A stretch of DNA of 64,000 bases from Rusavskia elegans (lineage: Eukaryota; Ascomycota; Lecanoromycetes; Teloschistales; Teloschistaceae): contig SAUG01000135.1 in assembly GCA_011316305.1 (NCBI GenBank), forward strand, positions 1 through 64,000, written 5' to 3'. The notes under the pieces were generated by a model. The model ran no database searches. It saw only the letters and a program-made list of their open reading frames with translations, and was not told the DNA's origin. Every line of letters begins with the position of its first letter. The stretch's first letter is position 1. A program made the position numbers and the translations under genes. Shown here one piece after another: positions 24,547 to 58,436 of this stretch.

Positions 24547-24953
24547 TAAACTGGCCGTCGGGTCGGGTTTCGAATCTAGGTTAGCTAATCTAACCCGATC
24601 CGAGTCGAGTTGAAAAATAGTCCGATCCGACCCGAGTCGGGTCGGATTATTATAAAGTTCGATTCGACTTAGGTCCGGGTTAAACCCGGGTTCCCGAATT
24701 CGACCCGCTAAAACTACTAAAATCTCTTTTTCTATATAGAAAACCTCTTTTTTTACTATATATTTATATTAATACTTTAGATATTATTTAGATAAATATC
24801 GATCCCTTATTACTAAATAGTAAATATTAATTAAATTAAAATTAATATATTTATATTACCATTTTATTTTATTTCATTATCTAAATATAAATCGTATTAA
24901 TTCTAAATTTTTAAAACTAATATAAAATATTTAGTTCTTTTATATCCAGCGAG

Positions 24954-25425
24954 TGTTATGAGCACGCGCGGCGTGATTTCAGGAACGCAGTAGTGCTTAG
25001 TACAGCACTAGAACTCCTTATTATACCTAGACAGGTAGGAAGGACTTGGTATTATTATCTTAGTTATCTTAGTAGGTAAGGTACCTAAGGAAGGTTATCT
25101 CAGTTATTTTAACGAGTAAGGTACCTAAGGAGGGTTATCTCAGTTATCTTAGCGAGTAAGGTACCTAAGGAGGGTTATTTCAGTTATCTCAGCAAGTAAG
25201 GTACCTAAGGAAAGGAGGATCTTATTATCTATATAGATCCCGAACTCGACGCCTTTATAGCTCGTATTTAATTTATTAGTTATCGCTATATACTACTCTA
25301 GTAATTAAACTAACTTATTCCTATATTAATTTAAAGTAATTACTCGTTATACCTCCGTTTACAGATATACTAATAAGTCCAACCAACCCTTGAAGATACC
25401 AAGACCCCCAGGTAGCCCTATAACA
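24954..25425 (+). mobile_element. Solo LTR K, copy 1 (472 bp), little mutated
   Basis: Starts TGTTATGAGC and ends CCCTATAACA. Flanks GCGAG (24,949-24,953) and GCGAA (25,426-25,430) form a 5-bp duplication with one G-to-A change. It keeps CA and TG freely (GAGCACGCG, GTACAGCACTAG), in contrast to its host element. No internal region or second LTR accompanies it here. Confidence 0.8.
25055..25215 (+). repeat. 40-bp minisatellite in solo LTR K
   Basis: About four tandem units of 40 bp built from GGTTATCTCAGTTATCTTAG followed by CGAGTAAGGTACCTAAGGA. Each contains the palindrome GGTACC. Units differ at a few positions consistent with C-to-T changes. Confidence 0.85.
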
Positions 25426-25429
25426 GCGA

Positions 25430-28060
25430 AGTTCTTTCCGATAGGTCTTTTCTAAATAAAATCTATCCTAGCTAGTCTATAAATTAGGCGGTAAACCGAT
25501 TTACGAATATTATACTATTAAAATTTTATTATTTATATAGAAAGTAAAGATAGACTATTAAAAATATAGCTAATAAATTCGAGCCGACTATCTAATACTA
25601 GTCTTATAAAATAATAATAAATATTTTTAATAGAATCTAGATTGCTATAAAGAATTCGAATATTAGTAGTCTAGTATTTCTATAGCTATCGGTTATAAAG
25701 ATAAACTCTATAGAAAATTGGTTAATTCTCTCTAGTTAAAAAAAGCTATAGGATATATATAGTCGAAATAGTAATAAAAACTCCACTAGGTTGTTTTAAT
25801 AATAAATAGTCTATCTAAAATTATATATAAAAACTATTCTAAATTTTTCGACATTTTTATAGCTTCTAGTTCTTCTAATATATTTACTTTAAAAAAATAT
25901 CTTAGTACTATTATTTACTAAAAAATTAAACGATATTATTCGTAGTCTTTTATTAAACTAATATTTATCCGCGTAAATAGCTAATAGTAATATAAAAAGA
26001 TAATATAAAGCTTATTTTAATTATAGAAGAAAAGCTATATTAAAATCGAATCTATTTTTAACTAAACTATATTGAATAAATATCTATATAATACTTTTTT
26101 AGATCTAAATCTACTAGTTCGAACTATCGAAAATAAAAGATTTAAGCTACTACTATAAATACTTCGTCTGAATATAAAGTTCGTCGGCCGTATATAATTT
26201 ATATAAATAGTCTTCGACAGTAATAATACTATCCGCGAGTAATTTAAATCTAATTTAAAAACTTTAAAACGTATTTTCTTTATACTAGATATCTGGTTAA
26301 ATCTATAAAAGGTTATATACTTAGAAGTATTTATATATTAAATTAATATTTATTTTTAGTTTTAGGAACGTCTAATTAGATTTATATTCCTTTTTACTAA
26401 TTACTCTAGCTATTTATAGTACTAGAAGCTATTAAAGCTTTTAGAATTTTTCTAGCTTAGGTCGAAACTTCTAGATATTATTACCGATAATACTAGTTCT
26501 AATAATACGTTAAAAAAAGAATTTAAAAAAGTTTTTATTCGATCCGATAGTTAATAAAATCGAGTCAAAAATTCTCTACTTTATTTAGTTTATATAATTA
26601 ATCTAGTAGCTTTAAACTTAATAAAAATATTAAATTATAAGTAATTAGCGACGATTTTATCTAAAAATTGGATAAAAAATAAGTTAAAGCTATTGGTACT
26701 AGCCTATTAAATATTATAAGAAAGGTAATATACGTAGATAATAAAAATTTAGAAGTTTTAAAACTAATATTTATTTTAGGCTTATACTATTATAGTCTAT
26801 ATCTCCATCTTTTTTTAATATAAACTTCGCTTTAAAAAAATCTAGAAAAGGGTCGATATTGATTTTGAATCTAGAAATATAATTTAAAATATTCGTATAT
26901 AATAGAATTCGACGTATTTTATAATTTATCGAGTATATTATTTACGCTATATTATTAATAAATTTATAGAAAAGATATCGCAAGATCTATAAATATAAAG
27001 GATTACTTTTAATATAGATAAATAGTAATCTACTTTCCTTATAGATAGTATATTATAGCTGTTCTATAAAATTACTTTATTAGGTTGAAAAAATATTAGA
27101 CGTTAGAGTTTATTTGATATTCCGACTTTATAGTACTATTTTCGATTATTTTACTAAAATAGAGGAAATAGTTCGATTATCGAACTACGTTAATAAAGAA
27201 ATAATATTAATAGTTTATAATAAAACTAATATAAAGTTTACGAAATACTATTTTTATATTAAAAGTAAAAGTAGATTAATTTATAATATTATAAATAATT
27301 TAGATCTTATAGTAAGGTTTAGCCTTTATTATAATTAGGATAAAAAAGATAATAATAATAAAATCGAAAATTTTTCGGGATATAAAAATAGGTATCAGAA
27401 TAAATTTAAAAAATATTCTACTAAATACTATAGAAAGCCTAATAATCTATTAAAGTCTAAAACCCGTAATATAATAGAAAATAAAATAATATAAAAGGAT
27501 AATATATTATAACTTTACTAATTAGTCTGAAATCTATTTTATTAATTTTAAATAGTATTTTTTAATAATTTTAGCGTCTTCGAATAGCTGCTTCCGAAGC
27601 TAATCGATATTTTTATATTAATACTATCGAAGAGATTCTAAATTAAATATTCTAGAAAAATAATATTTCGAACTTTCTAAAACTAGTATAGATAGTTTAT
27701 AATATTTTTACTTACCTAATATCTTTAGTAGAAATAGAACGGACTTTTAATTTTATAAAAAAAAGTTTATTAATAGGATCGAGCCTAAATAATTCTAGAA
27801 TATATAGAGTAAATATAGATAATTAATTACTATAATCGTACTATAGGTTTAGAAGTAGAAAAAGCTTTAAAAAAGCTATAGAATATATATAACTAGGTAG
27901 AATAAGAAGATAGAGTTCTATCTGGAAAACGGAATTCTTTTAAAAAGAAATTTAGTAGCATTTTAAATAGATTAATCTAAATATTTCTTAGTTTAGAAAA
28001 TAAATATCTATTCCTAATATTTAGACTATTTCGTCTATTTAAATATTAAATTCTAAATTT
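25430..28060 (+). pseudogene. hAT transposase relic (complete element copy)
   Basis: Conceptual plus-strand translation keeps the landmarks of hAT transposases in order. An N-terminal region at about 25.5-26.2 kb may hold a BED-type finger but is unreadable. LDIWLNPWKG follows near 26,290, then IITDNTSSNNT near 26,480-26,507 (hAT ITTDNAxxN block). A LVYIINL segment lies near 26,590 (LAHVINL block) and ILDVRVYLIFRLYSTI near 27,085-27,130 (DVxTRWNSTYxML block). YLISLVEIERTFNF lies near 27,705-27,750 (C-terminal SSAxxERxFS dimerisation motif). The longest open stretch is 74 codons (27,114-27,338). Stops occupy former Gln and Trp codons. The gene cannot make protein. Confidence 0.8.
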
Positions 28061-28690
28061 TCGACCCTAATAAATAGAAAAATATTAAAAAAATAAAAAA
28101 ATTTAAGGTTTTACTATATTAAATAGAAGTTTTAAATTTTAATAAAGGTTATTATATAGTAGATAATTTAAATACAGTTAAATTCTTTCAAATATTGATC
28201 GAATAGATTAATAAAGTAATAATTTTGAATTTTTTTTATAATAGATTTATATAGAATACTTTTATAAAACTTTATATAGAATCTCGAAATTTAATTTAAT
28301 TATATAGAAATAATTTTTTATATCCTAAATAAGATAAAATCGCCAGAAATGGAAGTAAAAATAGCTATAAAAGAGATAATAAACTTCTAGCTAAATAAAA
28401 AATTAAAAAAGTTTATAATAAAAAGATTTAAAATTAAAATATTTAATATTTAATTTTTTATTCTCGATTATTGAATTTTTATTACTAAATCTACTATATA
28501 GATATTAGATATTTAAATTTACTCTATATTAGAACCTCGGTTTCTTTATATATATTTTAAAATAAAATTAGAATTTATATTAGTTTAATAATTAAAATAT
28601 ACGAATTTAAAGATTTTAAATCTATAATTTTATATTAAAATATATTATTTAAATCAAATACGTCTTTTATTAATAATGTACTAATATATC
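28061..28690. other. AT-rich spacer inside the hAT-type element, no gene recognised
   Basis: About 630 bp between the transposase end and gene 2. The other copies have only a short spacer here, so this is probably an additional inserted fragment. Plus-strand frames have weak polyprotein-like character but I cannot assign a domain. Confidence 0.4.
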
Positions 28691-28699
28691 GAAGTAATA

Positions 28700-30560
28700 T
28701 ATTATTCCAAATCTACTATCTCTAGATATAAATAACTAGTTAAAAAGCTTTATAATCTCCTTTATATTTTTATTTTTATCGTTTTCGGCTTTCGCCTCTG
28801 CTTTTTCTTCTATATTTCCCTCCCTTTTCTATATTTTAATATTTATCTTTATCTTTATTATTATCCTAATTAAAGTTAATACTTCTAGCTAAGCCTTTAT
28901 TATCTTTAAATTTAGTACTATTTTATATAAAAGAGTACCTTTCTACTATCTAATCCTTTTTATTAATTTTAATAATATTATTACTATTCTTGTCCTCCTT
29001 TTTATAGAGAAATTCAATATATTTATTAGCTATATTTCTACTATAACTAAATTTTTTAGTAAACGCTGTCTATTTTTTCAGAGCATTTAGGGCTCTAGCG
29101 GATTAAAGTTTTTAAAGGCCGGTATAATAGATAATTTATTTTTAAATAAAATTAACGATTAGAGTTATATACTTCGTTAAAATTATTCTATTCGAACTAT
29201 TAAAAATAATATTAGATTAGAAAAAATATTAGAAATAAATATTTCTATACTAGATAGCTTTATTTATATTCGATATACTATTCTAATATATTATTTTACT
29301 CTAATTTTATTTTATCTATTTAATAGTTATCGCCTTTTCTATATCTGCTATAAAAGGCTTAGTACGTAGATTATTTTTATAGTAGAATATTATATATAGA
29401 TTAGTATTTAGTATAGTATATATTACTTTATTATATTACTATAGATTCCTTTTTCGATTCTATATTAGCGAATCCTAAAATGGATTTTCAGATTAGACCG
29501 GTTGACAGCTATCTCAATCCAAATAATCCAAAAATCCAAATAATCCAAAAATCCAAAAAGTGAATTTTCGATAGATTAGAGCTCTAATAGTATCTATAGT
29601 AAGAAAATCTGCTTAGTAAATAGCCTAAAATAGAATGTATATATAAGCTAAAAATAGATCTATATAATCTAAATCGAAAATAAGATTTAGCGGTCGCCGC
29701 TAAAAGCGGGAATAACGGAAGTCGAATATCTATTTAATAAACTACGCTAGACCTAATCTAGTTAGATTCTAGTAAGAAAACCTAGTATTTTCGATCTAGA
29801 CGAAGCTAGTCTAGCGTTATATATAGGCGTATATAGGCCTACTAACTACTAATATGGATTTAAACGAGTTTAAAATCGAATCTCTAAATCTTCTCAGCCG
29901 TCTCAGCCGTCTCAGCCGCTTAGCCGTCTTAGCCGTCTTAGCCGCGCAGCCACGCAGCTTCGGGTATACCCGAGACCGGCTAACAAGTCGCTTATAAGCC
30001 GCTTTCAGCCGATACCGGCTAAGAACCGGCTGAGACGGCTGAAACGGCTAAAATCGGCTTCAAACCGGTTTTAGGAAATGCTGATATAAAGTATAAAGTC
30101 TATTTTCTAATCTTTTATATTCTATTCTAATATAGCTCTCGTCTTGACCCTCCTACGTTTTTCTAGAAATCTATTCTTTTAAATTTTTTAAAGTATTTAT
30201 ATATTTTAATATAGTCTGTATTCTATTTTTTATAGAATTTATATTCGATATCGGACTATTTTTTCCTATATTAATAGTTTATAGATAATTTAGATTTTAT
30301 AGATAGTAGTTTTAATTTAGATATAATAGATAGTATACTATGTAATATAATAGAGTAATATAATTAGTAGCTATAGAATTATCTAAAGATTCTATATATT
30401 ATAGTAGCAAAATATACTAGAAGTTTATAGAAATATATAGATTTATTTAAAACCTTAATTCTCTAGCTATAGTATAGTCGATAACTATCTAGATAATTTT
30501 ATTTTATTTCTAATTTATAATTTTTTTAATAATTAACTACTATAATAAGATAGTAATATA
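28700..30560 (-). pseudogene. Unrecognised hAT-element gene 2 relic
   Basis: Runs opposite to the transposase and away from the histone-like gene. It is interrupted by the 622-bp element at 29,464-30,085. The counterpart at 54,060-55,270 shows the protein best: a middle part rich in Lys, Arg and Glu (KSKLVVNYKRGKK, ITIYKYFKKLKGIDF) and a C-terminal tail of alternating Asp/Lys. I recognise no family. Conservation of position in three copies argues that it was a real component of the element. Confidence 0.55.
29464..30085. mobile_element. Element F, copy 1 (622 bp) with GC-rich inverted arrays
   Basis: Also found at 49,548-50,160. Ends are an imperfect inverted repeat, ATTAGCGAATCCT and AGGAAATGCTGAT. 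The last about 190 bp hold a tandem array of CAGCCGTCT-type units (29,898-29,960) facing a second array of GAGACGGCTGA-type units (30,030-30,055). These could fold into a long hairpin. Near the start are tandem ATCCAAATA units. No coding potential is seen. Target duplication is not clear. It interrupts gene 2. Confidence 0.75.
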
Positions 30561-30564
30561 CTAT

Positions 30565-30745
30565 ATACCGTATCGTATTATACTTTATTCTATTATTTGT
30601 TTTTGTTTCTTTTTATTCGTTATAGCGTAATATATAGTACGTACGAATCTAAATAGAAATAATATATTAAAGTAATATAATTAATCGTGTAATAATATTA
30701 AAACTTCTAGATAAAAAATTAATTCTGTCTTATAAAAGTATAGTA
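30565..30745. promoter_or_regulatory. Divergent intergenic region between gene 2 and the histone H3-like gene
   Basis: Conserved spacer between two genes pointing away from each other, also present at 53,930-54,060 and about 32,200-32,350. It contains a GTACGTACGAATCTAAATAG block found in these copies (in the 53.9-kb copy as ATTTAGATTCGAACGTAC). Its position suggests a shared bidirectional promoter. There is no direct evidence of function. Confidence 0.4.
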
Positions 30746-31400
30746 AAGACTCGAAGAAATAGAATCGGGAAAGATAAAAAAAAAAGTAAAAAAAAATCTT
30801 ATAGCGCTATAGTATCGGTAATACTCTAGAGTAATATATTTTAAATAGTCTAGCTAATAATCTTTTAAAAGAAATATAAATAGAAGCCTAGAATTATCGT
30901 TTTTTAAAAAATCTATAGATACTAGTAAGGCTTCGAATTTTTTATTTCTAAAGTACTTTTTACTAGACTATATCGCGAAATCCTTACCGATATCGCTATT
31001 ATAAATATAAATAGAGAAATCGATAGAATATATAATATAGTATTAGTAGTTCTATAGGATATAATAAAAAGATATATAATTATTTTTCTAATAAATAAAT
31101 ATATAACTTTATTATATTACTATATATATCCGACTATACTTGTTATTTATAGATTATTAACTAGCTATAATCTATACTAAGTATATTACTAATTAGTAGA
31201 AAGACGCCTAGTTTATTAAAGGGTTAATATAGAATCTAGAGATATAGTCGGGAATATAATAATAGCTAGTTAATAATAAACTCTAAAGAATTAAAAGCTC
31301 TAGAGAAAGAATATATATCTATAGAATTATTTAAAAAAGGATAATACTATTTTTATAGTACCGGTATATAAACTAGTAATAAATAGAATATATTACTATT
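30745..31400 (+). pseudogene. Histone H3-like gene relic in the hAT-type element
   Basis: Plus-strand frame from a Lys/Arg-rich N-terminal segment (about 30,760-30,820) into KPRIIVF, stop, KIYRY, two stops, GFEFFISK and VLFTRLYREILTDI (30,881-31,000). It continues with a second helix resembling NREIDRI...VLVVL, stop, DII...YIIIFL. Histone H3 has [33 protein letters not shown] then RFQSSAVMALQEA...AYLV. The fit covers alphaN, alpha1 and alpha2 with matching spacing, and stops fall where H3 has Gln or Arg. The third helix is diverged and the frame continues beyond it. The copy at 53,250-53,900 agrees and is better preserved. Whether it was a canonical H3, a CENP-A-like variant or another H3-fold protein cannot be decided. 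Confidence 0.65.
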
Positions 31401-31595
31401 AATATTACCTGTAATTATTTTTATATTCGACTATCTAATATAATTATAAGTCGGGTCGGATCGGATTCCTATCGGATCCTATTTTATAACTCGACCCGAC
31501 TCTCGGTTCTAATACTAGGATTTAACCTGACCCGTTAAAATTTAGATCGGGTACCCGACGGTTCGACGAGAACCCGATCCGAAATGGTCAGATTA

Positions 31596-31885
31596 AACTT
31601 TCTACTGTATGTATACAATACGCAGATGACGTTATAGACCAGATATTATAAATATTGAAGAGTTTATTTAAAACTTCCGAACGATATAGAAATAATCAAA
31701 TTTTGACTAATAGGCGCTAAGTTATTAGATATTTAAAATAGAGTTATTAGTGATATTTCTGACAGCTCTACCAGCTCTACTAGGCCGGCGCCAAGCTTTA
31801 TCTAAATCCAATAGCTCTAATTCTCTACTATATATACGTAATATATATCTGACGTTATAGGCTGAAATTCGTAATATTTAAAAAA
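31596..31885 (+). repeat. Tandem repeat G, right part
   Basis: Resumes the array interrupted at 24,546, starting AACTTTCTACTGTATG. One further CCGGCGCCAAG anchor lies at 31,783. Together with the left part it proves that the hAT-type element inserted into this array. Confidence 0.75.
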
Positions 31886-32509
31886 TTAATATTAGACCTT
31901 TTAAATATTCTAATAGTTAGTTAAATTTATTTTAATAGCTATTAAAAAATTCGATTTCTATAAAAAAAATCTATTTAAAAATTAAATTATTTAATTTTAT
32001 TAATGAAATATATTTAATCTAATTGATCTATAAAATTAAATTCTAGAAATATTCTATTATAAATTGAAAGTTTTACTTTAATAATAAATATAGCTTTGAA
32101 AATCGAATTTTAAAACGAATTCGGAAGCTATTTAGGCCCGATATTAATCTATAAAGCGAGGTACGAGCGATTAGATTATATCGGGTCTAAATAGCGACGG
32201 GCTCGTATACTATACCGTATTATATTCCATTTTATAATTGGTTTTTCGTTCCATTTATTTATTATAGTATAATATATTGTACGTACGAATCTAAATAGTG
32301 ATAATATAATAAAGTAAAATAATTAATTATATAATAATATTAAAACTACTTTAGATAAGAAATTAATTCCGTCCTATAAAAATATAGCGAAGACTTAAAG
32401 AAATAGAATCGGGAAAAGTAAAAAGAAATATAAAAAGAAATTTTACAGCGCTATAGTACTAGTAGTATTCTAAAACAATATACTCTAAATAGTTTAGCTA
32501 ATAATTATT
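31886..32509 (+). pseudogene. Fragment of a fourth hAT-type element copy
   Basis: From about 32,195 it matches the divergent spacer and the basic N-terminal part of the histone H3-like gene (GAATCGGGAAAAGTAAAAAG...). It is then cut by the family A element at 32,510 before the H3 core. The stretch 31,886-32,190 is AT-rich without a recognisable feature. Confidence 0.5.
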
Positions 32510-32669
32510 TAGACTGACCGTTTTATCGGGTTTCGAACTTGGGTTCGTATCTCGGGTTCGACTTTCTAACCGTATTAGAAAGGGAATTAATTTAAACTGG
32601 TAATTTAGACGCGTTAGCTACGTTTATCGCGAAATCGGGTCGCTATTTTAGTTCGAAGTGGCCAGTCTA
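32510..32669. mobile_element. Short hAT-type element, family A, copy 4 (160 bp, reverse)
   Basis: Reverse complement of the other family A copies, with ends TAGACTGACC and GGCCAGTCTA. The flanks (TAATTATT, TTAATATC) do not match, so one side was probably lost or rearranged. L-family sequence begins directly to its right. Confidence 0.8.
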
Positions 32670-35050: not shown

Positions 35051-35332
35051 TATTACGTCCACGATTTTACAGAAGTACTTTAGAAAATTAGTTGGCTAAA
35101 CGAAGCCAATTATCTATAGCCGCCTATAGCCGCTATAGCCGATCTTTTTAATAGAATCTTAGCGAGATAGCTACCTGTCGGTACTATCGGCTATTTTTAC
35201 CATATATATCGTTCCTTTATTCCTATTAGATAGTTTCTCTCGTTAGTTATTAATGTAATTATTAAATATCTATATATATTCTCTTTTTAATTACTTTTAT
35301 AACGAAGATACTTCGTAATATCGCGATCGTAC
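35051..35332 (+). repeat. Middle L LTR, left piece
   Basis: LTR starting TATTACGTCC, inserted in the outer LTR at a site reading GGACTA on the left and CTACG on the right of the rejoined sequence. It is itself cut at GATCGTAC by the complete L element. Its right piece is 38,683-38,816. Confidence 0.75.
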
Positions 35333-35839
35333 TGTTACGTCCACGACTCTACAGAGATTCTATAGAAGGATTAGTCAGGCAAGCGAGCCTAATTATCTAT
35401 AGCCGCCTATAGCCGATATAGCCGCCCTGCTAGATAGGATTTTTAGTAGGCGGCTATTTATCGGCCTTTATAGCTACTTTTACTATATATATCGCTTATT
35501 ATTTATATAGATAGTTTCTCTTATTAGTCGTTAATATAATTATTAAATACGTTTCTACTATTCTTTTCTTAATTATCTTATAACGAAAATACCTTATAAT
35601 ATCGTAACCGTACCTCTACGGCTATATAGAATTAGTTATAATAATCTACGCTAGGATTCCCTTACTATTTAGTAGCTCGGACTATATCTATAGCTATAGC
35701 TAGGCTCGAATATAATACCTTCTAATATATAGGGACGTTATACTTTAATAATTTACTATATTAGTTTTATTATCCCGACTTCTAGATCGAAGCGATATTA
35801 TTAAAGTAGTAATACTAAATATCTATAAAGGAGATAAAG

Positions 35840-37600: not shown

Positions 37601-38272
37601 ATAAAAGCCTTTTACGCGGCTAGCGTAAAACTAATAGAAAAGTAAAACGCGACTGGATTATTAAGCTTATTAAGCCGGGATAGTACGCGTTATTCCTAAA
37701 CGATAAAATTACTTTTACGTTTATCTAAAACGCGATAATAAGTAATAAAATATTTTTACTTATTAAAAAGCCGGCGGAAATCTAACTTTTAGGCTAAATA
37801 CTTATTACGAATTTCTTTTTCGGAATTAAAAAAAGACTCGATATAATAATAAATTTCGGAATATTTATCTAAAATATCTACAATATTAAAATAAAGTTTA
37901 TTTATTTTATTTTTAAAACGCTTCCCTAGAAGGGTTAGTAAAAAATAAAAAAGTAAAAGAAATAATATATAGGTAGTATTAGATATTAGAAGATTATACG
38001 ATTTCTAAACCCGAGTATATTTACCGTAAGTATTACTATTAATTTTAACTTTATATTCTTTTAAGAGATTATAGATATATAGAGAATAAAGAAAAGGTAT
38101 TATAATTTCTTTTAATTAAATACGATAAAAAGACTTTAGATAATTTCCCTTTTAAAAACGTATAATAAAGATATTAAAGAAAGAAAAAAGGAGAAAAGAG
38201 AAAGAAAAAAAAGCTTTTTTTCTACCCCGCGGACAGTTTTATACTAGATAAAAAACGATATAGAGAGAGCTG

Positions 38273-38682
38273 TATTACGTCTATAATTCTATAGAGGTTC
38301 TATAGAAGAATTAGTTAGATAAGCGAATCTAATTATCTATAGCCGCCTATAGCCGATATAGCCGCCTTTTTAGACGGAACTTTTAGTAGGCGGCTATTTA
38401 TCGGCCTTTATAGCTATACTTACTATATATATTCCTTATTACTCCTATAGATAGTTTCTCTCGTTAGTCGTTAATATAATTATTAAATATATTTCTACTA
38501 TTCTCTTCTTAATTACTTTATAATAAGGATACTTTATAATATTATAACCGTACTTCTACGGCTATATAGGATTAGTTATAATAATCTATACTAGGATTCC
38601 CTTACTATTTAGTAACTCGGACTACGTCTACGGCTATAGCTAGGCTCGAGCGCAACGCCCTCTGATATACAAGGACGTTACA
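38273..38682 (+). repeat. 3' LTR of the complete L element
   Basis: 410 bp, starting TATTACGTCT and ending ACAAGGACGTTACA. It contains the paired blocks CTATAGCCGCCTATAGCCG and AGGCGGCTATTTATCGGCC, which are inverted relative to each other and could fold into a hairpin. Confidence 0.8.
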
Positions 38683-46392: not shown

Positions 46393-46545
46393 GTTCTCTC
46401 CGCATCTGTCCAGCAATCGTGTCGCGATGTTATCAGGGTTTGCTGATGAAGACTCTCCTTTACCTCCAGAACCCAAGCCGGAGTGGGCACGGACCACCTG
46501 CAGCCCCTCTCTTGCCACGCCGGGAACGGGCTTAGAGATGGGAAG
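46393..46545 (-). promoter_or_regulatory. 5' flank of the oxygenase gene at the island border
   Basis: Open in frame with the oxygenase (42 codons before the first ATG) and of normal composition. It then changes abruptly to AT-rich DNA at about 46,545. It may be 5' UTR, or coding if the true start is in a lost or mutated exon. Any promoter must lie here or in the RIP-mutated DNA to the right. Confidence 0.5.
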
Positions 46546-47481: not shown

Positions 47482-48380
47482 TAATTTTTTTTATAATAGT
47501 TTCTATCAAATATATATTATTTATAAAATATAAATCTCTCTGTTTTATTTCTATTTTTTTTATTTTTTTTTTTTAACTTTTATTATATATAGTCGTATCC
47601 TTTATCTTCGGTTATATTAATATATCTAATATCGAAAGGAAATTATATCTTTTTTTTATAGTTATTATTTTTAAAATATATCTAAAATTTATAAAATTCC
47701 TCCGGATACTAATATTTATAGAAAATATATTAAATTAAAAAGATTTTATAATATTTTTATATCTAAATAAATCTATATAATTTAAACTCTTTATTATTTT
47801 ATCTATTACTAATTTATTATAAAAAAATATCTCGAAATTAGAAAAACTAAATTCTATTCTAAAATTAAATATATTATATTTAAATATTCTATTAAAAATA
47901 TAAAAATTTAATTTTTATATCTTTATTAAAATAGGATTTGTAATAATTTATCTATTTATAAATTAAATTTTTATTATTGATTTATAAAATAAATCCGCTT
48001 TATATAATATTTTAAATCTTTAGTAAAAAGATTCTATTATTTAAAAATAGCGAGTTTTATTAAAGTATAATAATATTAATAATTTTAAATTTTTTAATTC
48101 CATCGGGATATTTATACTAGCCGAATAAACAATATTTAATAAATTTTTTTCTAATTTCGATTCGAATAATTTTAACCGGTTTTTAAAAAAATTTAATTTT
48201 TTTTAACTTTTAGAAACGTTTTTATAAAAGAATATCTAATAAAAGATTTCTTTATATAATTTCTTTTTTATTTAGCGATATATTAATATTATAGATTTTT
48301 TCGGATTTTTTAATATTTTCGCTAATTTTTATTTTTCAACTACTATTTTATTTTATTATAATAAAGTCGGTAACTATTTA

Positions 48381-48540
48381 TAAACTGGCTACTTCGAACC
48401 AAAATGGCGACCCGACTTCGCGATAAACGTGGCTAACGCGTCTAAATTACCAGTATAAATTAGTTTTCTTCCTAATACGGTTAGAAAGTCAAACTCGGGA
48501 TACGAACTCGGGTTCGAAACCCGATAAAACGGCCAGTCTA
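48381..48540. mobile_element. Short hAT-type element, family A, copy 5 (160 bp)
   Basis: Ends TAAACTGGCT and GGCCAGTCTA, with a perfect ACTATTTA duplication on both sides (48,373-48,380 and 48,541-48,548). Related uninterrupted sequence lies at about 62,099 (GTAATTATCTATCTTTTAG). Confidence 0.9.
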
Positions 48541-49106
48541 ACTATTTATCTTTTAGTTATATATTCTATATAAAGTTTAGTATTCTATCTAGTTCCGATA
48601 TAAAATTATATTCGGTTTCTTCTATTTTTTTAATAATATTTTAGTAGAGTTTTTTAGTATTATCTATCTATAATTTTTAGATTGTTTATTAGTTTTTATA
48701 ATATTTTAAAGCTAACTATATTAGTCAATCGTAATATTCTTTCTAGATTTTTTCTTTCTATATTTCGTCTTTTTTTTTAAAAAAAAGTATCGATTTCCTT
48801 AATTTATTTATAGTCTATATTTCATACGATATCTATTTCTTTATATAAAAGATTTTTATATACGAAAAAGTATATTATTTATAGTTTTATCCTTTTTCTA
48901 ACTATATTTTCTTATACTAGTATTCTAGAAATTATTTTTATCAATTTATTTTCTAATATAATATATTATCTAAAGCTTTCGATTATTATAAAATCTAATA
49001 TTTCTAGACTGGCCGATTCGGGTCGGGTTCTTGTCGAACCGTCGGGTATCCGACCCGGTTTTAGTAACTCGACCCGGGTTCGATCTACTAAACGGCCGGG
49101 TCGGAT

Positions 49107-52100
49107 TTGTTACGTCCACGACTCCATAGAGGTTCCCTAGAAAAATTAGTTAAGCAAGTAAATCTAATTATCTATAACCGCCTATAGCCGTTATAGCTGT
49201 TCCTTCTAATAGAACTTTTAGTAGATAGCTACCTATCGACCTTTACGGCTACTTTTACTATATATATCGTTTATTACTTCTATAAATAGTTTTTTTTATT
49301 AGTTATTAATATTATTATTAAATATATTTCCACTATTTTCTTTTTAATTACCTTATAATAAAGATACCTTATAATATTATAACTATACCTCTACGGGTAT
49401 ATAGATTTAATTATAAAAATCTATACTAGGACTCCTTTACTATTTAATAGCTCGGACTACGTCTGTAGCTATAGTTAGATTTAAGCGTAACGCCTTCTAA
49501 TATATAAAGACGTTATATTTTAATAATTTACTATATTAATCTCGTTTATCAGCGAATCCTGAAATGGATTTTTAGATTAGACCGGCTGACAGCCAAATAA
49601 TCCAAATAATCTAAATAATCTAAATAATCTAAAAATCTAAAAAGTAAATTTTCGATAGATTAAAGTTCTAATAGTATCTATAGTACAAGTATCTATTTAG
49701 TAAACAGCCTAAAATATAATCTATATATAAGCTAAAAATAAATCTATATAATTTAACTCGAAAATAAAGTTTAACGGCCGCCGCTAAAAGCGGGAATAAC
49801 GGAAGTCGAATATCTATTTAATAAACTACGCTAGACCTAATCTAATTAGATTCTAGTAAAGAAATCTAATATTGTTATTCTAGATAAATCTAGCCTAGCG
49901 TTATATATAGACGTATATAGGCCTACTAACTACTAATAAAGACTTAAACGAGTTTAAAATCGAATCTCTAAATCTTTTTAGCCGTTTTAGCTATTTAGCC
50001 GTTTTAGCCGTCTTAGCCACGCAGCTACGTAGCTTCGGGTATACCTAAAATCGGCTAATAAGCCGCTTATAAGCCGCTCTTAGCCGTACCGGCTAAGAAC
50101 TGGCTAAGACGGCTAAGACGGCTGAGACCGGCTTTAAGCCGGTTTTAGAAAATGCTGATGTTATCCCGATCTATAGATCGAAGTAATACTATTAAAATAG
50201 TAATACTAAACGTCTATAAAAGAGATAAAGGATCTTTAAAGCTATAGATTATTTAAATAAATATCTACTTCGTATTATATATAAACTAGTTTCTAAATAA
50301 AGTAGTTAAAATATTATTTATAATATTATATCTAGAGGAAGCTGCTTTTAATTAGATATAGCCCCGAATAGAAAATTACCTCGATAACCCGAAAAAATAG
50401 AGAGAAGACGAAATAATATAAATTTTCTATACTTTTAGTAATTTTATTCTAGCTATAAAAGAAGCCTTCGGAAATAATAATAAAGATAGAATAAAAGATA
50501 GGAAACTAATAGTTCTAAAATAATAGAAATCGGTAGCTATTTATAATACTTAATTTAGAATATTAGCTTATAAAATAGACTAGAAAGATTTAGTTTTAAA
50601 AGTCTATTTCTATAAAGGACTCTAGATAAAAATTAAAGAAACTATAGTAGTAATTAAAAAACTAGATTCGTTAGTAGATTTTATCGATTTTATAATAAAG
50701 ATTAATACTAGATAATAAAATATATATTTAGATAAATAGGCGTTTAGTAAAATAGGACCCGTTAAAAAAAAGTCTAGAAGAGATTTAATAGAATTTAATA
50801 CTATTAAAATTAAAGGATTATAAAATAAAGTTTATTATTTATATAAAAAAATAGGATATTTTAAAATAAATTACTTAATTAAAAAAGTAACCGAAGTAAT
50901 TAAATATTTTTTTAAAATAATAGAAAAATTATCTAATAAATACGTAGCGAATAGCTAATTAGCTTACTATAGAAATATTTACTCTATCTATCTATTAGAT
51001 AAATAGAGGACAGGATAGTACTCTAAAAAACTAAGAAAAATATAGAAAATTAAACTAATATTCGATTTTAAACTATATAAAACCGAAAAACCCTTATAGT
51101 AGCGCTTAAAGTTAAAATCGGAGGTTAATAAATAATAGCTCTTATAAATAGAAAGGAAGATAATATAGCTATAAAGAGATTCTATAATAAAATTAAAAGA
51201 TATCTCTATAGACGAATAATAAAAAATAATAGAATCCTTAATATCGAAGTTAAAATAAAGTATAAATAAATTAAAATAAAAAACTTTATTATAATCGATA
51301 GTTAGTAAAATTATATTATTTTAGAAAATAAATAGAAAGAATTAATTTTAGTAAAATTAATAGAAAGAAGTACTATCGGTAAAAAAATAGAACTATAAAC
51401 TATATATCTTCTAGCCTATAAAAACCTTTTATATAAAAAAATAGACGTCGTTTTAATAATAAATTATAAGGAGATTAAAGACTTAGATAAAAAGTTTAAA
51501 AAAGACGGAAAGATTTAGAAAATAAAAATTTAAAAAAAATACTATTATCTCCTTTAGTAATTTACTAAAAAATATAATAAAAATAGAATAAAATTATTAA
51601 ATAACTTTAGATAAATTATAATAGAATAATATATTAAAGTATAGTTAAAACTATAGATAAAATCGAATATTATAAACTAAACCAGGTAGATTAGAATAAA
51701 GAAACGCCGTATTTAATACTAAATATTTTATTTAAAAATAATAAATTCGACTAGTATCTATTTTTATTATTTTAGAATAAAATAGTAGCTAAAGAATTAG
51801 ATTTAGCTAGACTATTAGAGGAATCTAAAGTAGTTTATAATATAAATATATAATTTAGATAATAAAGATAGTAAAGAAAAAGCCTTTTACTAAACCTTTA
51901 TTATAAACCTGTAGTTTCTAGGAGTTAAAAAAAAATTAACCTTTTTTAAAAACTAATCTAGATTATCTAAATTTAATATAGATATTAATTTAATAGACGC
52001 CTTTTATATAGCTAGTATAAAACTAATAGAAAAGTAGAATATAACCGGATTATTAAATTTATTAAAATAAAAGAGTACGCGTTACTTTTAAATAATAAAA

Positions 52101-53064
52101 TTACTTTTACGCTTATTTAAAGCGCGATAATAAATAATAAAACGCTTTTATTTACTAAAAAATCGGCAGAAATCTAATTTCTAGGCTAGGTATTTATTAC
52201 GAATTTCCTTTTCGAAATTAAAAAAAGATTTAATATAGTAGTAAACTTTAGAATATTTATTAAAAATACCCGTAATATTAGAACGAAGTTTATTTTTTTA
52301 TTTTTAAGATTCTTTCCTATATAGGTTAGTAAAAATAGAGAAATAGAAAGAATATAATATATAGATAGTATTAAATATTAAAAGATTATAGGATTTCTAA
52401 GCCCGAGTAAATTTACTATAAATATTACTACTAACTTCGATCTTATATTTTTTTAAAGGATTACGGGTATATAAGAAATAAAAAAAAGGTATTATAACCC
52501 CTTTTAATTAGATACGGCGAAAGGATTTTAGTCGATTTCTCTTTCGAAAATATATAGCAGAGATATTAACGAAAGAAAAAAAAAAGAAAAAAGATCTTTT
52601 TTATATCCCGTAGACGGATTTTATATTAGATAAGAAGTAATATAAAGAGGGCCGTATTATATCTATAATTCTATAGAGGTTTTCTAGAAAAATTAGTTAA
52701 ATAAACGAGTCTAATTATCTATAGCCCTCTATAGCCGCTATAGCCGCCTTTTTTAATAGAATTTTTAGTAGACGGCTACCTATCGGTTTTTACGGCTACT
52801 TTTATAATATATATTATTTATTACTCCTATAGATAGTTTCTTTTATTAGTTATTAATATAATTATTAAATATATCTCTACTATTTTCTTTTTAATTATTT
52901 TATAATAAAGATATCTTATAGTATCGTAAATATATTTCTACGGGTATATAGGATTAGTTATAATAATCTATACTAGGATTATTTTACTATTTAGTAGCTC
53001 GGACTACGTCCACGACTATAGCTAGACTCGAACGTAACGCCTTTTAATATATAGGAACGTTATA
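49107..53064 (+). mobile_element. L-family element inserted in the hAT-type element
   Basis: LTRs 49,107-49,517 (TGTTACGTCC) and 52,655-53,064 (ends AACGTTATA), 411 and 410 bp. The internal region is of the L type with an inserted element F. The gag-like frame is again closed by many stops, and the zinc-knuckle region near 50,835-50,885 reads YYLYKKIGYFKINY. The hAT-type subterminal motifs continue on each side (GGGTCGGATT before, TTTCGGGTCGGATT after). Confidence 0.75.
49548..50160. mobile_element. Element F, copy 2 (613 bp)
   Basis: ATCAGCGAATCCTGAAATGG to AAAATGCTGAT. Inserted 31 bp after the L 5' LTR. It keeps the facing arrays TTTAGCCGTTTTAGC and AAGACGGCTAAGACGGCTGA, so the hairpin potential is conserved between copies while point changes accumulate. 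Confidence 0.75.
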
Positions 53065-53249
53065 TGGTTATAGATTCTAATCCGACTTTCGGGTCGGATT
53101 ATAGATTTTAATCCGAAAATCCGACTCGAAAATCCGATCCGACCCGATTTATAATCGTATTCGATAGTTAAATATAGAAGTAATTACAGGTATAATAAAA
53201 TAGTAGTGTATTCTATTTAATATTAATTTATATAATAGTTATCTATAAA

Positions 53250-53900
53250 TATTAGCTTATATATCTATATTATATAAATAGTATTACTTTCTTTTAAATA
53301 ATTTTATAGATATATATTTTTTCTTTAGAGCTTTTAATCTTTTAGAATTTATTATTAACTAGCTATTATTACGTTTCCGGCTATATTTCTAGATTCTATA
53401 TTAATCTTTTATTAAACTAGATATCTTTCTACTAAATAGTAACGTTTTTAATATAGATTACGGCTAGTTAATAATCTATAGAAAATAAGTATAGTCGGAT
53501 ATATATAATAATATAGTAAAGTAATATATTTATTTATTAGAAAAGTAATTATATATATCTCTATTATAATTTATAGAACTGCTAATACTATACTTTATAT
53601 TCTATCGATTCTCCTATTTATATATATAGTAGCGACGTCGGTAAAGATTTCGCGATATAGTCTAGTAAAAGGTACTTTAGAAATAAGAGGTTCGAAGCCT
53701 TTCTAGTATCTACGGATACTTTAAAATACGATAGTTTTAGATTTCTAATTATATTTCTTTTAATAGATTATTAGCTAAACTATTTAGAATATATTATTCT
53801 AGAGTATTACTAGTATTATAACGCTATAAAATTTCCTTTTATCTTTTCTTTTACTTTTCCCGATTCTATTTTCTTAAATCTTCGCTATACTTTTACTGGT
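53250..53900 (-). pseudogene. Histone H3-like gene relic, second copy
   Basis: The clearest copy. Minus-strand frame from 53,745: KSKTIVF, stop, SIRRY, stop, KGFEPLISK, VPFTRLYREIFTDVA, then NRRIDRI, stop, SIVLAVL, stop, IIIEIYIITFL down to about 53,525. Against histone H3 ([29 protein letters not shown], then FQSSAVMALQEAAEAYLVSLF) the helix alphaN-alpha1 part matches at more than half the positions with no gaps, and alpha2 fits when TAA/TAG are read as Gln and ATA as former Thr or Met. A Lys/Arg-rich segment precedes it (53,900-53,820). The extension after alpha2 (53,520-53,250) does not look like H3. No Met start could be fixed. Confidence 0.68.
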
Positions 53901-53904
53901 CGGA

Positions 53905-54060
53905 ATTAATTTCTTATCTAGAATAGTTTTAATATTAATATACGATTAATTATATTCTTTTAATATATTATCTCTATTTAGATTCGAACGTACTATATAT
54001 TATACTACGACGAACGAAAAAAACGAAAAACTAATAAGAGAGTTAAATATAATATAGTAC
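53905..54060. promoter_or_regulatory. Divergent spacer between histone H3-like gene and gene 2
   Basis: Counterpart of 30,565-30,745, with ATTTAGATTCGAACGTACTATATATT shared in reverse in part. It is placed between two genes read outward and may have been a bidirectional promoter. Confidence 0.4.
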
Positions 54061-55270
54061 GATATATAGTATATTAATATTTTATTATAGTAGTTAATTA
54101 TTAAAGAATAGAAAATTAGAAATAAGATAAAAGTAATCGTCGACTATATTACGGCTAGAAGGTTAGAATTTTAAATAAACCTATATACTTCTATAAATTT
54201 CTAGCGTATTTTACTACTATAATATATAGAGTCTTTAGATAATTCTATAGCTACTGATTATATTACCCTACTATATTATTTAGTATACTATCTACTATAA
54301 TATCTGAATTAAAATTACTATTTACGAAATCTAAATTAGTTGTAAACTATAAACGCGGTAAAAAGTAGTCCGATATCGAATATAAAATCTATAAAAAACA
54401 GAGTATAGACCGTATTACGATATATAAATACTTTAAGAAACTTAAAGGAATAGATTTCTAGAAAAGCGTAGATATAGAGACAAGGACCCTATTAGAATAG
54501 AATATTAGAGATTAGAGAATAGACTATAGAGTCGAAAAAGAACTCTATAATAATATAATAAAATAATATATACTATACTAAGTACTAATCTATATATAAT
54601 ATTATACTATAAAATCGATTTACGTACTAAAGCTTTTATAGAAACTATAAAAGAGGCGATAACTATTAAAGAAATAAAATAGGATTAGAACGAGATAATA
54701 TATTAGATTAATATATCGAGTATAAATAGAGGTATCTAATATAGGAATATTTATTTCTAATATTTTTTCTAGTTTAATATAGCTATTAATAGTCTAGATA
54801 GAATAATTTTAATTAAGTATATAGCTCTAATTATTAACTTTATCTAGTAATAAGTTATCTATTATACCGGTCTCTAAAAAATTTAGTCCGCTAGAGTTCT
54901 AGACCTCTTAGAAAAATAGATAGCGTTTATTAAGGAATTTAGTTATAACGGAAATATAGCTAATAAATATATTAAACTTTCCTATAAAAAGAAAGATAAA
55001 AGTAGCGATAATAATATTAAAGTTAACGAAAAGGATTAGATAGTAGAAGAATACTCTTCTACGCGGGATAATATTAAATTTAAAAATAATAAAAATTTAA
55101 TTAGAAGTATTAATTTTAATAGTTAAGATAAAAATATAAAAGAAGATAAAGATAAGAATAAAGATATAGATAAAGATAAAGATAAAAATAAAAATAAAAA
55201 TAAAGATAAAGATATAGAAGAAAGTATTAAACTATCTAAATAGTTATACAAATCGAGAAGTAATAGTATA
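54060..55270 (+). pseudogene. Unrecognised hAT-element gene 2 relic, second copy
   Basis: Plus-strand frame around 54,310-54,480 reads LLFTKSKLVVNYKRGKK, then SDIEYKIYKKQSIDRI and TIYKYFKKLKGIDF, with stops at likely Gln/Arg codons. A highly charged Asp/Lys tail is encoded at 55,125-55,215 by GATAAA-like hexamers. I recognise no domain. Copies exist at 28,700-30,560 and 22,578-23,780. It could be an accessory protein of transposition or a captured host gene. Confidence 0.55.
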
Positions 55271-55399
55271 AAAATAATTTATTATCTATATATATTACTA
55301 TACTAATATTAAATAAAAAGTATATTAGACTAATCTATTTAATATATTTTTAAAATCTTTTTTAAATAGATTCCTTTCTAAAAGTATAGTACTATTTTC

Positions 55400-58240
55400 T
55401 ATTTCTATCTAATTTAATATATTTTTTAGTTTTTCTAATATTTCGTCGGAATCTAAATCTATAATATAATTATAATATTTAATTATTATTATCTGCTCTA
55501 TATACTATAGAATTATTTAGACTCGATTTTACCGATAATCTCTTCTAGCGAGACTAAAAGTCCGCTTAATTCCGACCGAGAATATTAGATAAGAAAGAAT
55601 ATTATAAGGTACCTATGTTAATTTTAGGAAGTTTCAAGCGTTATTTTTTTAAAATATCCAGTTTAGATTATCTTCGGTAGTATTAACGTAGAAATATTAA
55701 TTAGCTTCGGAAGCAGATATTCGAAGATACTAAAACTATCGAAAAAGACTATTTAAAATAGTTATAGCAGGCTATTAACTAGTTAGTATATTTATAATAT
55801 ATTACTATTATATATTACTTTATTTTCTTTTTTATAGCGGGCTTTATAATTTAGTAGATTAAGAGGAACCCTATAGTATTTATTAAAGTACTCTTTAAAC
55901 TTTTCCCGATATTTATCTATATACCCCGAATATTTTTCTATATTTTCTTCCTATTTTTCGGTATTCTAGTCTCGATAAAAGCTAAGTTTTATTATAAAAT
56001 AAAAAATATTCGTAAAATTATATATTAGTCCTCCTTTATTTTTAGTACGAAAATAATATTTAGTAAATTTAGTAAAAGCCTTTTTATAAACTATTAGTAC
56101 TATCGCCTTTTAGAAATAATTCGAAGTTTTTATAATTTCCTATACTTTAGTAAAATAATTATAAACTATACTATAAAGTCGGTATATTAGATAGACTCTA
56201 ATATCTATAGTTTACGAAACTATTAAAGTAATTTTATAGAATAGCTGCAGTATACTACCTATAAGAAAAAGAGATTACTATTTATTTATATTAAAGATAA
56301 TCCTTTATATTTATAGATCTTACGAATTCTTTTTAAGAAATTTATTAATAGTTTAGTAAAGTAGATATATCCTACGAATTATAGGATAAATCGACTTCTA
56401 TCGAATATAAATATCTTAAATAAGGTTTCTAGTATAGAAATTAGGATCGGCCCTATCCTAAAATTCTTTAAAGCGAAGTTTATATTAAAGGGAAGTACCG
56501 GAATAGACGGTAATAGCGCGAGCCTAAAATTACTATTAGTATAAAAGTTATTTAATTTATATTATCTATATATATATATGCGATTAATCATTCGGATTTT
56601 AATTTTAGTCTTTTACGATTCTAACGCTAGAGGCGCTAAACCGATATTATCTATATATATTACCTTTTTTATAATATTTAATAGATCGATACTAATAGCT
56701 ATAATTTACTTATTATCTAGTTAATAGATAAAGCTATTATCTAATATTTATAATCTATTAGCTTTAATAAAATTAAAGACTACTAGATTAACTAGATAAA
56801 CTAGGTAAGATAGCGAGTTTTATAGTCGATCCTATCGACTATTAAATCGACTAAAAGCCTTTTTAAACTCTTTTTTTAATATTAAATTAAAGCTAGTATT
56901 ATCGGTAATAATACCTAAATGCTATTATTTAAACTAGAAAAATTCTAAAAGTATTAATAGCTATTAGTATTATAAACGGCCGGAGTAATTTATAGATAGA
57001 AATATAAATCTAAATAGACGTTCCTAAAATTAAAACTATACATTAACCTAGTATACGAATACTTCTAAATACGCGACCTTCTATAAATTTAACTAAATAT
57101 CTAATATAAATAAAATATATTCTATAGTTTTAAATTCTGATTTAATTCTATTACGAATAGTTTTAAATTTATTAAAGATTATTATTAAAAGTTATATACG
57201 CTTAAATAGCTATATATTTAGACGAAATATTTATAGTAATTTTCTAAAATTCGTATTTTTAATAATCCGGACTAGTAGATTTAAATCGAAGAAAATCTTA
57301 TATAGATATTTATTTTAGGTATTTTAATCGAAAGTAGAATCCAGCTTAATATAATTCTTCTTCTATTATTAAATAAATAAACTTTATATTATTTTTTTAT
57401 ATTACTATTTACTATTTATACGGATAAATATTACTTTAATAATAGATTTAAAGTTATATCTTTTAGATCTATAGTAACTATTAGTCGAAAGATACTTTTT
57501 TATAGTAGATATATTTAAAGAACTAGAAGCTATAAAATAGTTAAAAATCTTAAAATAGTATTTATATATAACTTTAGGTAGGCTATCCATTATTAAAGCT
57601 ATCTAGTTGAATTTATTCTATTAAAATAACTATTTTTATATTAAAGCCTTCTTCGCCTATAGGAGATCGGCTATTTTCTTCTAAATTCTATTTTTAATAT
57701 CTATAGCGATAGGAATACTAGACTATTGTTATTAGAAATCTTAATAGTAATCTATATCCTATTAAATAAATTTATTATTATCTCGAAATACTAGTTCTAC
57801 ATAGTTAGTTCGAATTTTATCTATTATATCTTTGATAATCTATTATTACTTTCTATATAAATAATTAAATTTAGCCGGGGTTCCGGTTATAAATCGGTTT
57901 AGAAGCTAGTTTATAGATTAACTAAAATAGATATTATTTAACGGGAACCTAATAGAAAGGCCTTTACTATCCGTATCGGTCTAGAAAATAAAAAGACGAA
58001 GATCGATATTTATATTAGATATTTTATATTACGTTTCTATAATAGTAATATAGAAGGGTAATATAGATATATAGATACTAAATAATAATATAAATAGTAT
58101 TAACTATTTAATAGATAATAATAAATAGTATATATTAATATTAGAAATATCTAAAGTCTTCAATATATTATTAGAAAAAAATAGGATTTATAGATATTAT
58201 AATATAGAAAAAGAATTATATTTTTAATACTAGAGTTATA
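55400..58240 (-). pseudogene. hAT transposase relic, second complete element
   Basis: Minus-strand counterpart of 25,430-28,060. The C-terminal motif near 55,570-55,520 reads LIFSVGIKRTFSLARR (hAT SSAxxERxFS). An N-terminal open stretch of 61 codons survives at 57,405-57,590 (DSLPKVIYKYYFKIFNYFI...). A SINE-like fragment is inserted at 56,577-56,645. All other frames are broken by RIP stops. Confidence 0.75.
56577..56645 (-). mobile_element. SINE-like element, 5'-truncated copy with target duplication
   Basis: About 69 bp of the 3' part of the SINE-like family (GCGATTAATCATTCGG to GAGGCGCTAAACCG). It sits between two copies of ATATTATCTATATATAT, one on each side, a duplication of about 17 bp. 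5' truncation with a long duplication is the pattern of target-primed reverse transcription. Confidence 0.6.
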
Positions 58241-58436
58241 TTTTTATTCGCGATTTTAGTATTTTAGTAAGTCGAATCTAAGTATCCGACCTCGATCCGA
58301 GTTTCAATCGGGTTAAACTATAGAAAAACCCGATCCAATTCGAGTCGGGTTAGATTTAACTATAACCCGATTCGGATCGGGTCGGGTTAGCTAATCTAGG
58401 TTCGAAATCCGACCCGACGGCCAGTCTAATTATTCC

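What the first reader, a model, noticed from the sequence alone, without database searches (positions are those of the whole stretch)
24547..58428. A hAT-type DNA transposon carrying a histone H3-like gene
Two complete copies (24,547-31,595 and 49,005-58,428) and at least two fragments share ends, subterminal repeats and a three-gene order: hAT transposase, an unrecognised opposing gene, and a divergent gene whose translation follows histone H3 from alphaN through alpha2 (xIRRYQxGFExLISKVPFTRLxREI when stops are read as Gln). Both copies have the H3-like gene next to the same terminal region, and target duplications (AACTTTYT; AATATTTC/ATTATTCC) enclose the whole unit. The gene is therefore part of the mobile element rather than a chance neighbour. 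An H3-fold protein encoded by a cut-and-paste transposon could act on chromatin at the insertion site, at centromeres or in silencing. I know of no described case. The H3 assignment comes from relics, and function is inference.
Basis: partly seen in the sequence, partly recalled or inferred. Interest (0 to 1): 0.88.

Follow-up and report, generated by a model that had tools for sequence, protein, structure and literature searches.

The report
Jumping gene carrying a histone gene
A dead family of fungal cut-and-paste jumping genes really does carry its own histone H3-like gene, a kind of element already described in other fungi, and the histone gene looks like a long-kept part of the element rather than a recent stowaway.

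Summary
Both window copies are complete hAT elements whose ends and 8-bp target duplications enclose a transposase, an opposing ORF and a histone H3-type gene. The H3 call is firm: a profile of nine decayed copies matches H3 chains in the PDB (E 1.6e-9), and three decayed genomic copies exceed the Pfam Histone cut-off. The genome holds at least 226 such H3-like loci; every listed row has stop codons. Of 62 near-full transposase copies, 42 have an H3-like gene within 12 kb downstream on the same strand (controls 6 and 8).

The claim of no described case is wrong. Manning 2013 describes a 5.6-kb hAT with the same three genes, and Dhillon 2019 RIP-killed hAT/H3 families.

Added here: two H3-like lineages share one origin relative to this host's H3 genes, were shuffled between transposase backbones, and diverged under coding constraint about equal to the transposase's (transversion omega 0.44-0.58 versus 0.60; P values mostly weak). 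This suggests, without proving, that the histone gene served the element. Its chromatin function is untested.

The parts
24539..24546 (.). target-site duplication, left, copy 1 (AACTTTTT)
   Evidence: read; 7 of 8 match the right copy, the difference being a T/C transition
24547..31595 (+). hAT element copy 1, 7.05 kb including a 0.62-kb nested repeat
   Evidence: best full-range genomic matches at 82-86%
25521..28045 (+). transposase region copy 1 (decayed)
   Evidence: aligns to the L044 transposase region, whose C-terminal piece matches PF05699 at 30.5 bits
28667..29464 (-). opposing central ORF, copy 1 (decayed, function unknown)
   Evidence: aligns to the L044 central ORF; no Pfam match for the L044 copy
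29464..30093 (.). nested 0.62-kb repeat inside copy 1
   Evidence: query gap 4918-5546 in the long matches; a related copy at 49,547-50,159
30740..31177 (+). H3-like gene copy 1 (decayed; N-terminus unresolved)
   Evidence: E 2.4e-47 to the C179 copy; lineage A; no Pfam hit on its own
31596..31603 (.). target-site duplication, right, copy 1 (AACTTTCT)
   Evidence: read
48997..49004 (.). target-site duplication, left, copy 2 (AATATTTC)
49005..58428 (-). hAT element copy 2, 9.42 kb with a nested LTR-like insert
49110..53065 (.). nested LTR-retrotransposon-like insert in copy 2, repeats of about 0.42 kb at 49,110-49,529 and 52,654-53,065
53451..53888 (-). H3-like gene copy 2 (decayed)
   Evidence: PF00125 E 0.033, below cut-off; E 2.0e-52 to the C179 copy
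54505..55321 (+). opposing central ORF, copy 2 (decayed; limits approximate)
   Evidence: alignment to L044
55321..58302 (-). transposase region copy 2 (decayed; limits approximate); in-frame N-terminal piece 56,643-57,950
58429..58436 (.). target-site duplication, right, copy 2 (ATTATTCC)
   Evidence: 6 of 8 identical, 7 of 8 as purine/pyrimidine
20537..23758 (+). third, truncated copy: transposase, central ORF and the first part of the H3-like module
32206..32511 (+). continuation of the third copy after an insertion; its match begins at the same query base (6018) where the first part ends

Best explanation
An ancestral fungal hAT transposon acquired, once, an intronless histone H3 coding sequence. 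From then on transposase, opposing ORF and H3-like gene (H3L) moved as one cut-and-paste unit of about 5-6 kb between short inverted ends, leaving 8-bp duplications. The family spread to hundreds of copies. Its H3L split into at least two deep lineages, which were exchanged by recombination between different transposase backbones. While the lineages diverged, the H3L reading frame was kept about as well as the transposase frame, so the gene probably helped the element. All copies listed here were then disabled by RIP-like mutation. SHOWN: anatomy, mobility as a unit, H3 homology, one origin of both lineages relative to this host's H3 and its presumed CenH3, module mismatch best explained by shuffling, inactivation. 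SUPPORTED BUT WEAK: coding constraint. INFERRED: that H3L protein entered nucleosomes or histone-chaperone pathways to the element's advantage, for example by making its own chromatin less open to silencing.
For: Ends and 8-bp TSDs enclose the three modules. One search scanned the window and 21 held loci (L009-L023, L044-L049); 10 of the 21 gave an end pair with matching flanks. L009, L014, L017, L045, L047, L049 have 8 of 8 identical; L012, L044 and the inner L019 element 7 of 8 with a transition; L046 6 of 8 with transitions; an outer L019 element, 8 of 8, keeps H3L only. hAT dimerisation domain PF05699 at 30.5 bits (cut-off 21.4) and Histone PF00125 at 30.0 bits (cut-off 26.4) in the C179 copy; nine-copy profile to PDB H3, E 1.6e-9. 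Linkage 42 of 62 against 6 and 8 in controls. One origin: 24 purine/pyrimidine sites in the safely aligned core group lineages A+B against host H3 + presumed CenH3, 2 sites for the other groupings together, ultrafast-bootstrap support 100. Shuffling: transposases of L009 and L017 differ by 0.027 transversions per site, their H3L by 0.151; L009 and L044 the reverse, 0.076 and 0.009. Constraint: transversion omega between majority letters 0.44 (P 0.008) for A/B1, 0.58 (P 0.08) for A/B2, wrong frames 0.77-1.03; transposase, fixed differences, 0.60 (P 0.055), wrong frames 0.92 and 1.82. H3L reads across the place where the host H3 gene has an intron.
Against: The constraint P values are modest, and there is no correction for the choice of groups and thresholds; the H3L and transposase omegas were counted by slightly different rules. 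Plain codon-position counts over the whole gene are not significant (P 0.08 and 0.43). The central ORF shows no constraint by omega (0.99 and 0.81), although one comparison has a third-position excess (6, 8, 18). The stem between host H3 and H3L shows no third-position excess (12, 4, 8 sites). The 38 copies in the H3L codon set were chosen for an in-frame match. No stop-free copy was listed, and the N-terminus is unresolved. Folding the window copies gave a poor model (pLDDT 52). In 11 of the 21 loci scanned no pair of ends with a good TSD was found.
Confidence: 0.7

Rival explanations
1. Passive transduplication: the element picked up an H3 coding sequence, which rode along without use and decayed; the published reading for the Mycosphaerellaceae (Dhillon 2019).
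For: All rows listed carry stops; central ORF without constraint by omega; no third-position excess on the stem; whole-gene position counts not significant; PMC6710886 (parts 1-4 of 7 read) reads its families so.
Against: Reading frame kept between lineages that differ by 0.10-0.15 transversions per site, in copies chosen for an in-frame match; omega well below 1 only in the true frame; third-position excess in the conserved core, 10 of 51 against 6 of 103, P 0.012; found with the transposase in 42 of 62.
Confidence: 0.25
2. Independent captures: lineages A and B each took H3 from the host at different times.
For: H3L of L009 and L017 differ far more (0.151) than their transposases (0.027).
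Against: A and B share 24 purine/pyrimidine sites in the safely aligned core against 2 conflicting (50 against 3 over the whole core) and a longer loop 1. Shuffling between backbones explains the mismatch.
Confidence: 0.04
3. The third gene derives from the centromeric H3 (CenH3) and acted at centromeres.
For: Loop 1 is longer than in H3, as in the host locus that I presume to be CenH3 (that label rests on its loop 1 and tail, so the point is partly circular).
Against: Distance to host H3 (0.26-0.27) is slightly smaller than to the presumed CenH3 (0.29-0.31); the PDB profile hits shown are H3 chains; Manning 2013 reports that the Pyrenophora H3L fits neither group (passage read).
Confidence: 0.06
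4. Chance neighbour or annotation artefact: decayed AT-rich DNA that resembles H3.
For: The window copies alone give no Pfam hit over the cut-off.
Against: Profile E 1.6e-9, copies over the Pfam cut-off, TSDs round the whole unit, linkage.
Confidence: 0.01

Closest known systems
Pyrenophora tritici-repentis hAT with H3L (Manning et al. 2013, PMC3538342; passages read)
   Same: [quoted passage not shown] about 5.6 kb against 4.9-6.0 kb here; an H3-like protein that is neither ordinary H3 nor plainly CenH3. A shorter derivative that keeps H3L exists there (2.3 kb); here an outer element in L019 keeps ends and H3L without the transposase.
   Different: There the copies are nearly identical, mostly open, and H3L is transcribed (ESTs); here every listed copy is broken by stops and there are hundreds in at least two deep lineages. 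Tail insertions reported there cannot be compared, because the H3L start is unresolved here. Sequence kinship of the two families could not be tested: no Pyrenophora sequence turned up in the searches made.
Pseudocercospora/Cercospora/Sphaerulina hAT with H3-like sequences (Dhillon et al. 2019, PMC6710886; parts 1-4 of 7 and passages read)
   Same: Many to hundreds of H3-like copies in hAT repeats, in P. fijiensis all in AT-rich blocks; all extra copies with stops; 8-bp TSDs, TIRs of 18-20 bp; intronless H3.
   Different: Pseudocercospora fijiensis elements are about 9.5 kb with one or two H3-like stretches; only DUF659, not the dimerisation domain, was found in them, and the parts read report no central ORF. 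Whether the unnamed host here is one of those six species is unknown.
DNA-virus histones (review PMC9145170; search listing and start of abstract only)
   Same: A parasitic genome that encodes a histone.
   Different: Those are viruses; this is a cut-and-paste transposon with a single H3-like gene.

Membership tests
hAT superfamily DNA transposon | 8-bp target-site duplication | tested here: met
   seven end pairs with 8 of 8 (L009, L014, L017, outer L019, L045, L047, L049), copy 2 of the window 6 of 8, no good pair in 11 of 21 loci; copy 1 read, 7 of 8
hAT superfamily DNA transposon | short terminal inverted repeats | tested here: met
   TAGACTGGCC...GGCCAGTCTA, with RIP-type changes
hAT superfamily DNA transposon | hAT C-terminal dimerisation domain PF05699 | tested here: met
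   30.5 bits, cut-off 21.4, in the C179 copy; not run on the window copies
hAT superfamily DNA transposon | catalytic DDE residues | tested here: inconclusive
   ILDTW- and ITDNTSSN-like stretches resemble hAT motifs recalled from memory; no Pfam hit for the N-terminal piece
Histone H3 | match to PF00125 over the curated cut-off | tested here: met
   three decayed H3L loci at 34.5, 32.4 and 26.9 bits; 30.0 bits for the C179 translation; of six copies none over the cut-off, three with a weak match
Histone H3 | closer to H3 than to H4, H2A or H2B | tested here: met
   of 175 PDB matches the 60 shown are named H3, one of them an H3/CENP-A chimera and one labelled only as a histone domain protein
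Histone H3 | histone fold | tested here: inconclusive
   model of the window copies has pLDDT 52
Histone H3 | open reading frame | tested here: not met
   all rows listed (150 each, capped) have stops
CenH3 / CENP-A | groups with CenH3 rather than H3 | tested here: not met
   distances 0.26-0.27 to H3, 0.29-0.31 to the presumed CenH3; one host only
CenH3 / CENP-A | longer loop 1 (recalled hallmark) | tested here: met
   6-7 residues longer than host H3; not sufficient alone
H3L-bearing hAT (Manning 2013 type) | transposase + central ORF + H3L inside the TIRs, 5-6 kb | tested here: met
H3L-bearing hAT (Manning 2013 type) | homologous in sequence to the Pyrenophora element | not testable with these tools
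   protein searches for the transposase and central ORF gave no hit (7,997 and 7,992 candidates scored)

The most novel reading that the evidence does not exclude
H3L is a true transposon-encoded histone H3 variant: one H3 capture in an old fungal hAT that became a selected accessory gene, was swapped among transposase lineages as a module, and acted on the element's own chromatin, for example as a replacement H3 that weakens silencing or RIP-linked heterochromatin at new insertions. The published cases read as separate transduplications would then be branches of one old H3L-hAT clan.
Probability: 0.25. Interest if true: 0.8.

Novelty: new member of a known kind. Interest (0 to 1): 0.38.

Why it matters
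Published accounts treat the H3 gene in these hAT elements as a captured housekeeping gene that was amplified and then killed or drifted. If H3L is an old, selected gene of the element, then DNA transposons as well as viruses have used histones against, or within, host chromatin. Fungi with open copies would be a place to test that directly.

Tried and rejected
Tried without result: protein-database search with the H3L profile returned 5 proteins with a PF00125 domain that read as ordinary or tail-extended H3, and none for transposase or central ORF (in each search only the roughly 8,000 candidates sharing most words were scored); structure prediction of the two window H3L copies, low confidence, not used further; resolving the H3L start codon, unresolved because at the candidate place all 11 lineage A copies shown read ATA and all 6 B copies TTA or CTA, and similarity runs on upstream; asking whether the extra H3-like host locus at C214 is a relative of H3L, inconclusive.

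Considered and rejected: transposase-only relatives as a separate family without H3L. In the first search many copies seemed to lack H3L, but several have it 2.6-4.8 kb downstream. No H3L was listed for 20 of the 62 within 12 kb on that strand; at least two of those (C30:181451, C15:2931) lie close to a contig end, both H3L searches were capped at 150 rows, and 'near-full' was my own cut (about 360 or more of 437 query residues).

Paper searches behind 'not in print' remarks: (open-licence PubMed Central only). PMC4994206 was opened for passages and held nothing on this.
Full report
WHAT IS THERE. The window belongs to a 44.2-Mb genome in 217 contigs, AT-rich except for a roughly 50% GC island at 42-46.5 kb. 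The window copies carry a strong RIP-type signature (TA/AT 1.28 and 1.33; (CA+TG)/(AC+GT) 0.23 and 0.10; the GC island 0.63 and 1.27). Copy 2 is enlarged by an LTR-like insert and copy 1 by a 0.62-kb repeat; a third copy is split around copy 1. A relative at C179 (L044) is clean: 5,298 bp, TIRs TAGACTGGCC/GGCCAGTCTA, TSD TTTAGAAC/TTTAGGAC. One search scanned the window and 21 loci: 10 of the 21 hold an end pair with a good TSD, 4.9-7.0 kb apart; in the other 11 no good pair was found, and pairs with only 2-4 of 8 identical bases also appear and are taken as chance. One of the good pairs, the outer element in L019, keeps the ends and H3L but not the transposase, and has a complete element of another lineage nested in it.

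THE THREE GENES. The transposase's C-terminal piece in L044 matches the hAT dimerisation domain at 30.5 bits; its N-terminal piece and the opposing central ORF have no Pfam match. The third gene is H3-like. Of six copies tested alone, three gave a match, none over the cut-off: window copy 1 nothing, window copy 2 E 0.033, the best (L009) 1.8e-4. Copies at C202, C179 and C158 pass the PF00125 cut-off in a genome-wide search (34.5, 32.4, 26.9 bits), and the C179 translation gives 30.0 bits. A profile of nine decayed copies (A1) against the PDB gives H3 chains from E 1.6e-9. The match covers the alpha-N region through alpha-2; the last helix is aligned only weakly.

PART OF THE ELEMENT. Two genome searches, each capped at 150 rows, give 226 distinct H3L loci on 79 contigs (merged in 57); every listed row has stops. 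Of 62 near-full transposase hits (about 360 or more of 437 residues), 42 have an H3L on the same strand within 12 kb downstream (29 within 4 kb, many at 2.6-2.8 kb); the opposite strand gives 6 and the upstream side 8. No downstream H3L was listed for the other 20; at least two of these lie near a contig end, and the caps make 42 a lower bound.

HISTORY. RIP makes only transitions, so I compared purine/pyrimidine states. H3L falls into lineage A (14 copies used) and lineages B1 and B2 (12 each) (of the 39 copies, one A copy covering only the core, L013, was left out). In the safely aligned core, 24 sites unite A and B against the host's H3 and presumed CenH3, and 2 sites support the other groupings; support for the split is 100. 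Over the whole core the counts are 50 and 3, with a less sure alignment. A and B differ by 0.10 transversions per site in the safe core, and by 0.26-0.31 from H3 or the presumed CenH3. The modules do not share one history: the L009 and L017 transposases differ by 0.027 but their H3L by 0.151, while L009 and L044 differ by 0.076 and 0.009. So H3L and backbone have most likely been shuffled. H3L reads straight across the place where the host H3 gene has an intron.

CONSTRAINT. Counting only transversion differences between the majority letters of the lineages, nonsynonymous over synonymous rates are 0.44 (A/B1, P 0.008) and 0.58 (A/B2, P 0.08), against 0.77-1.03 in the two wrong frames. The transposase between its own two types, counting differences fixed at 75% or more, gives 0.60 (P 0.055; wrong frames 0.92 and 1.82) and the central ORF 0.99 and 0.81 (wrong frames 1.02-1.56), although one of its comparisons has a third-position excess of 6, 8, 18. 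In the safe H3L core the A/B differences are 3, 3 and 10 by codon position (P 0.012). Simple position counts over the whole gene were not significant (P 0.08 and 0.43), and the stem leading from host H3 shows no third-position excess (12, 4, 8). I read this as moderate evidence that H3L was coding and kept while the element lineages diverged. It is not proof of function.

HOW IT MOST LIKELY WORKED. Shown: cut-and-paste units with H3L inside. Inferred: H3L protein, made when the element was active, joined the host's histone pathways to the element's benefit. Which benefit is open: weaker silencing of new copies, help with integration into chromatin, or more histone supply. The N-terminus, and so the state of K4, K9 and K27, cannot be read, so I make no claim on tail marks. 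A model from the two window copies failed (pLDDT 52).

WHAT IS KNOWN. Manning 2013 (PMC3538342; passages read) describes a 5.6-kb hAT with transposase, central ORF and H3L in Pyrenophora tritici-repentis, with open copies, ESTs for H3L, and an H3L close to neither H3 nor CenH3. Dhillon 2019 (PMC6710886; parts 1-4 of 7, and passages) describes RIP-inactivated hAT/H3 families in Pseudocercospora, Cercospora and Sphaerulina, reads them as an old transduplication and the Pyrenophora case as a recent, independent one. The finding is therefore a member of a known kind. The single origin of two deep H3L lineages within one genome, their shuffling and their coding constraint are additions that I did not see in those passages or in six searches of open-licence papers. 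Whether this family is the sequence relative of either published one could not be tested.

Noticed in passing
window 44,467-46,518 (-): The GC-rich island inside the AT-rich block holds an open gene of the RPE65 / carotenoid oxygenase family (PF03055, 385 bits).
   Followed up: partly
window 42,631-43,692 (-): An open 353-aa hydrophobic frame without a Pfam match lies near the oxygenase gene.
   Followed up: no
L032 (C214:42,716-42,916, minus): An additional divergent but stop-free H3-like exon in DNA of 47.5% GC, distinct from host H3 and from the presumed CenH3; its kinship to H3L was inconclusive.
   Followed up: partly
L019 (C172) 304-7,307 and 979-6,413: A TSD-flanked element keeping ends and a lineage A H3L but no transposase, with a complete lineage B element nested in it: a possible non-autonomous derivative.
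   Followed up: partly
window 49,110-49,529, 52,654-53,065, 62,316-62,725, 38,272-38,680, 35,335-35,754, 60,783-61,164 and others: Repeats of about 0.42 kb, probably LTRs of one retrotransposon family, occur many times in the window.
   Followed up: no
window 24,400-24,520 and 31,660-31,800: The DNA flanking copy 1 on both sides is similar to itself in direct orientation, so copy 1 seems to have landed in an older repeat (read).
   Followed up: no
window 29,464-30,093 and 49,547-50,159: A 0.62-kb repeat with imperfect inverted ends (CAGCGAATCCTGAAA / CAGCATTTCCTAAAA) is nested in copy 1 and, in copy 2, within the LTR-like insert.
   Followed up: no
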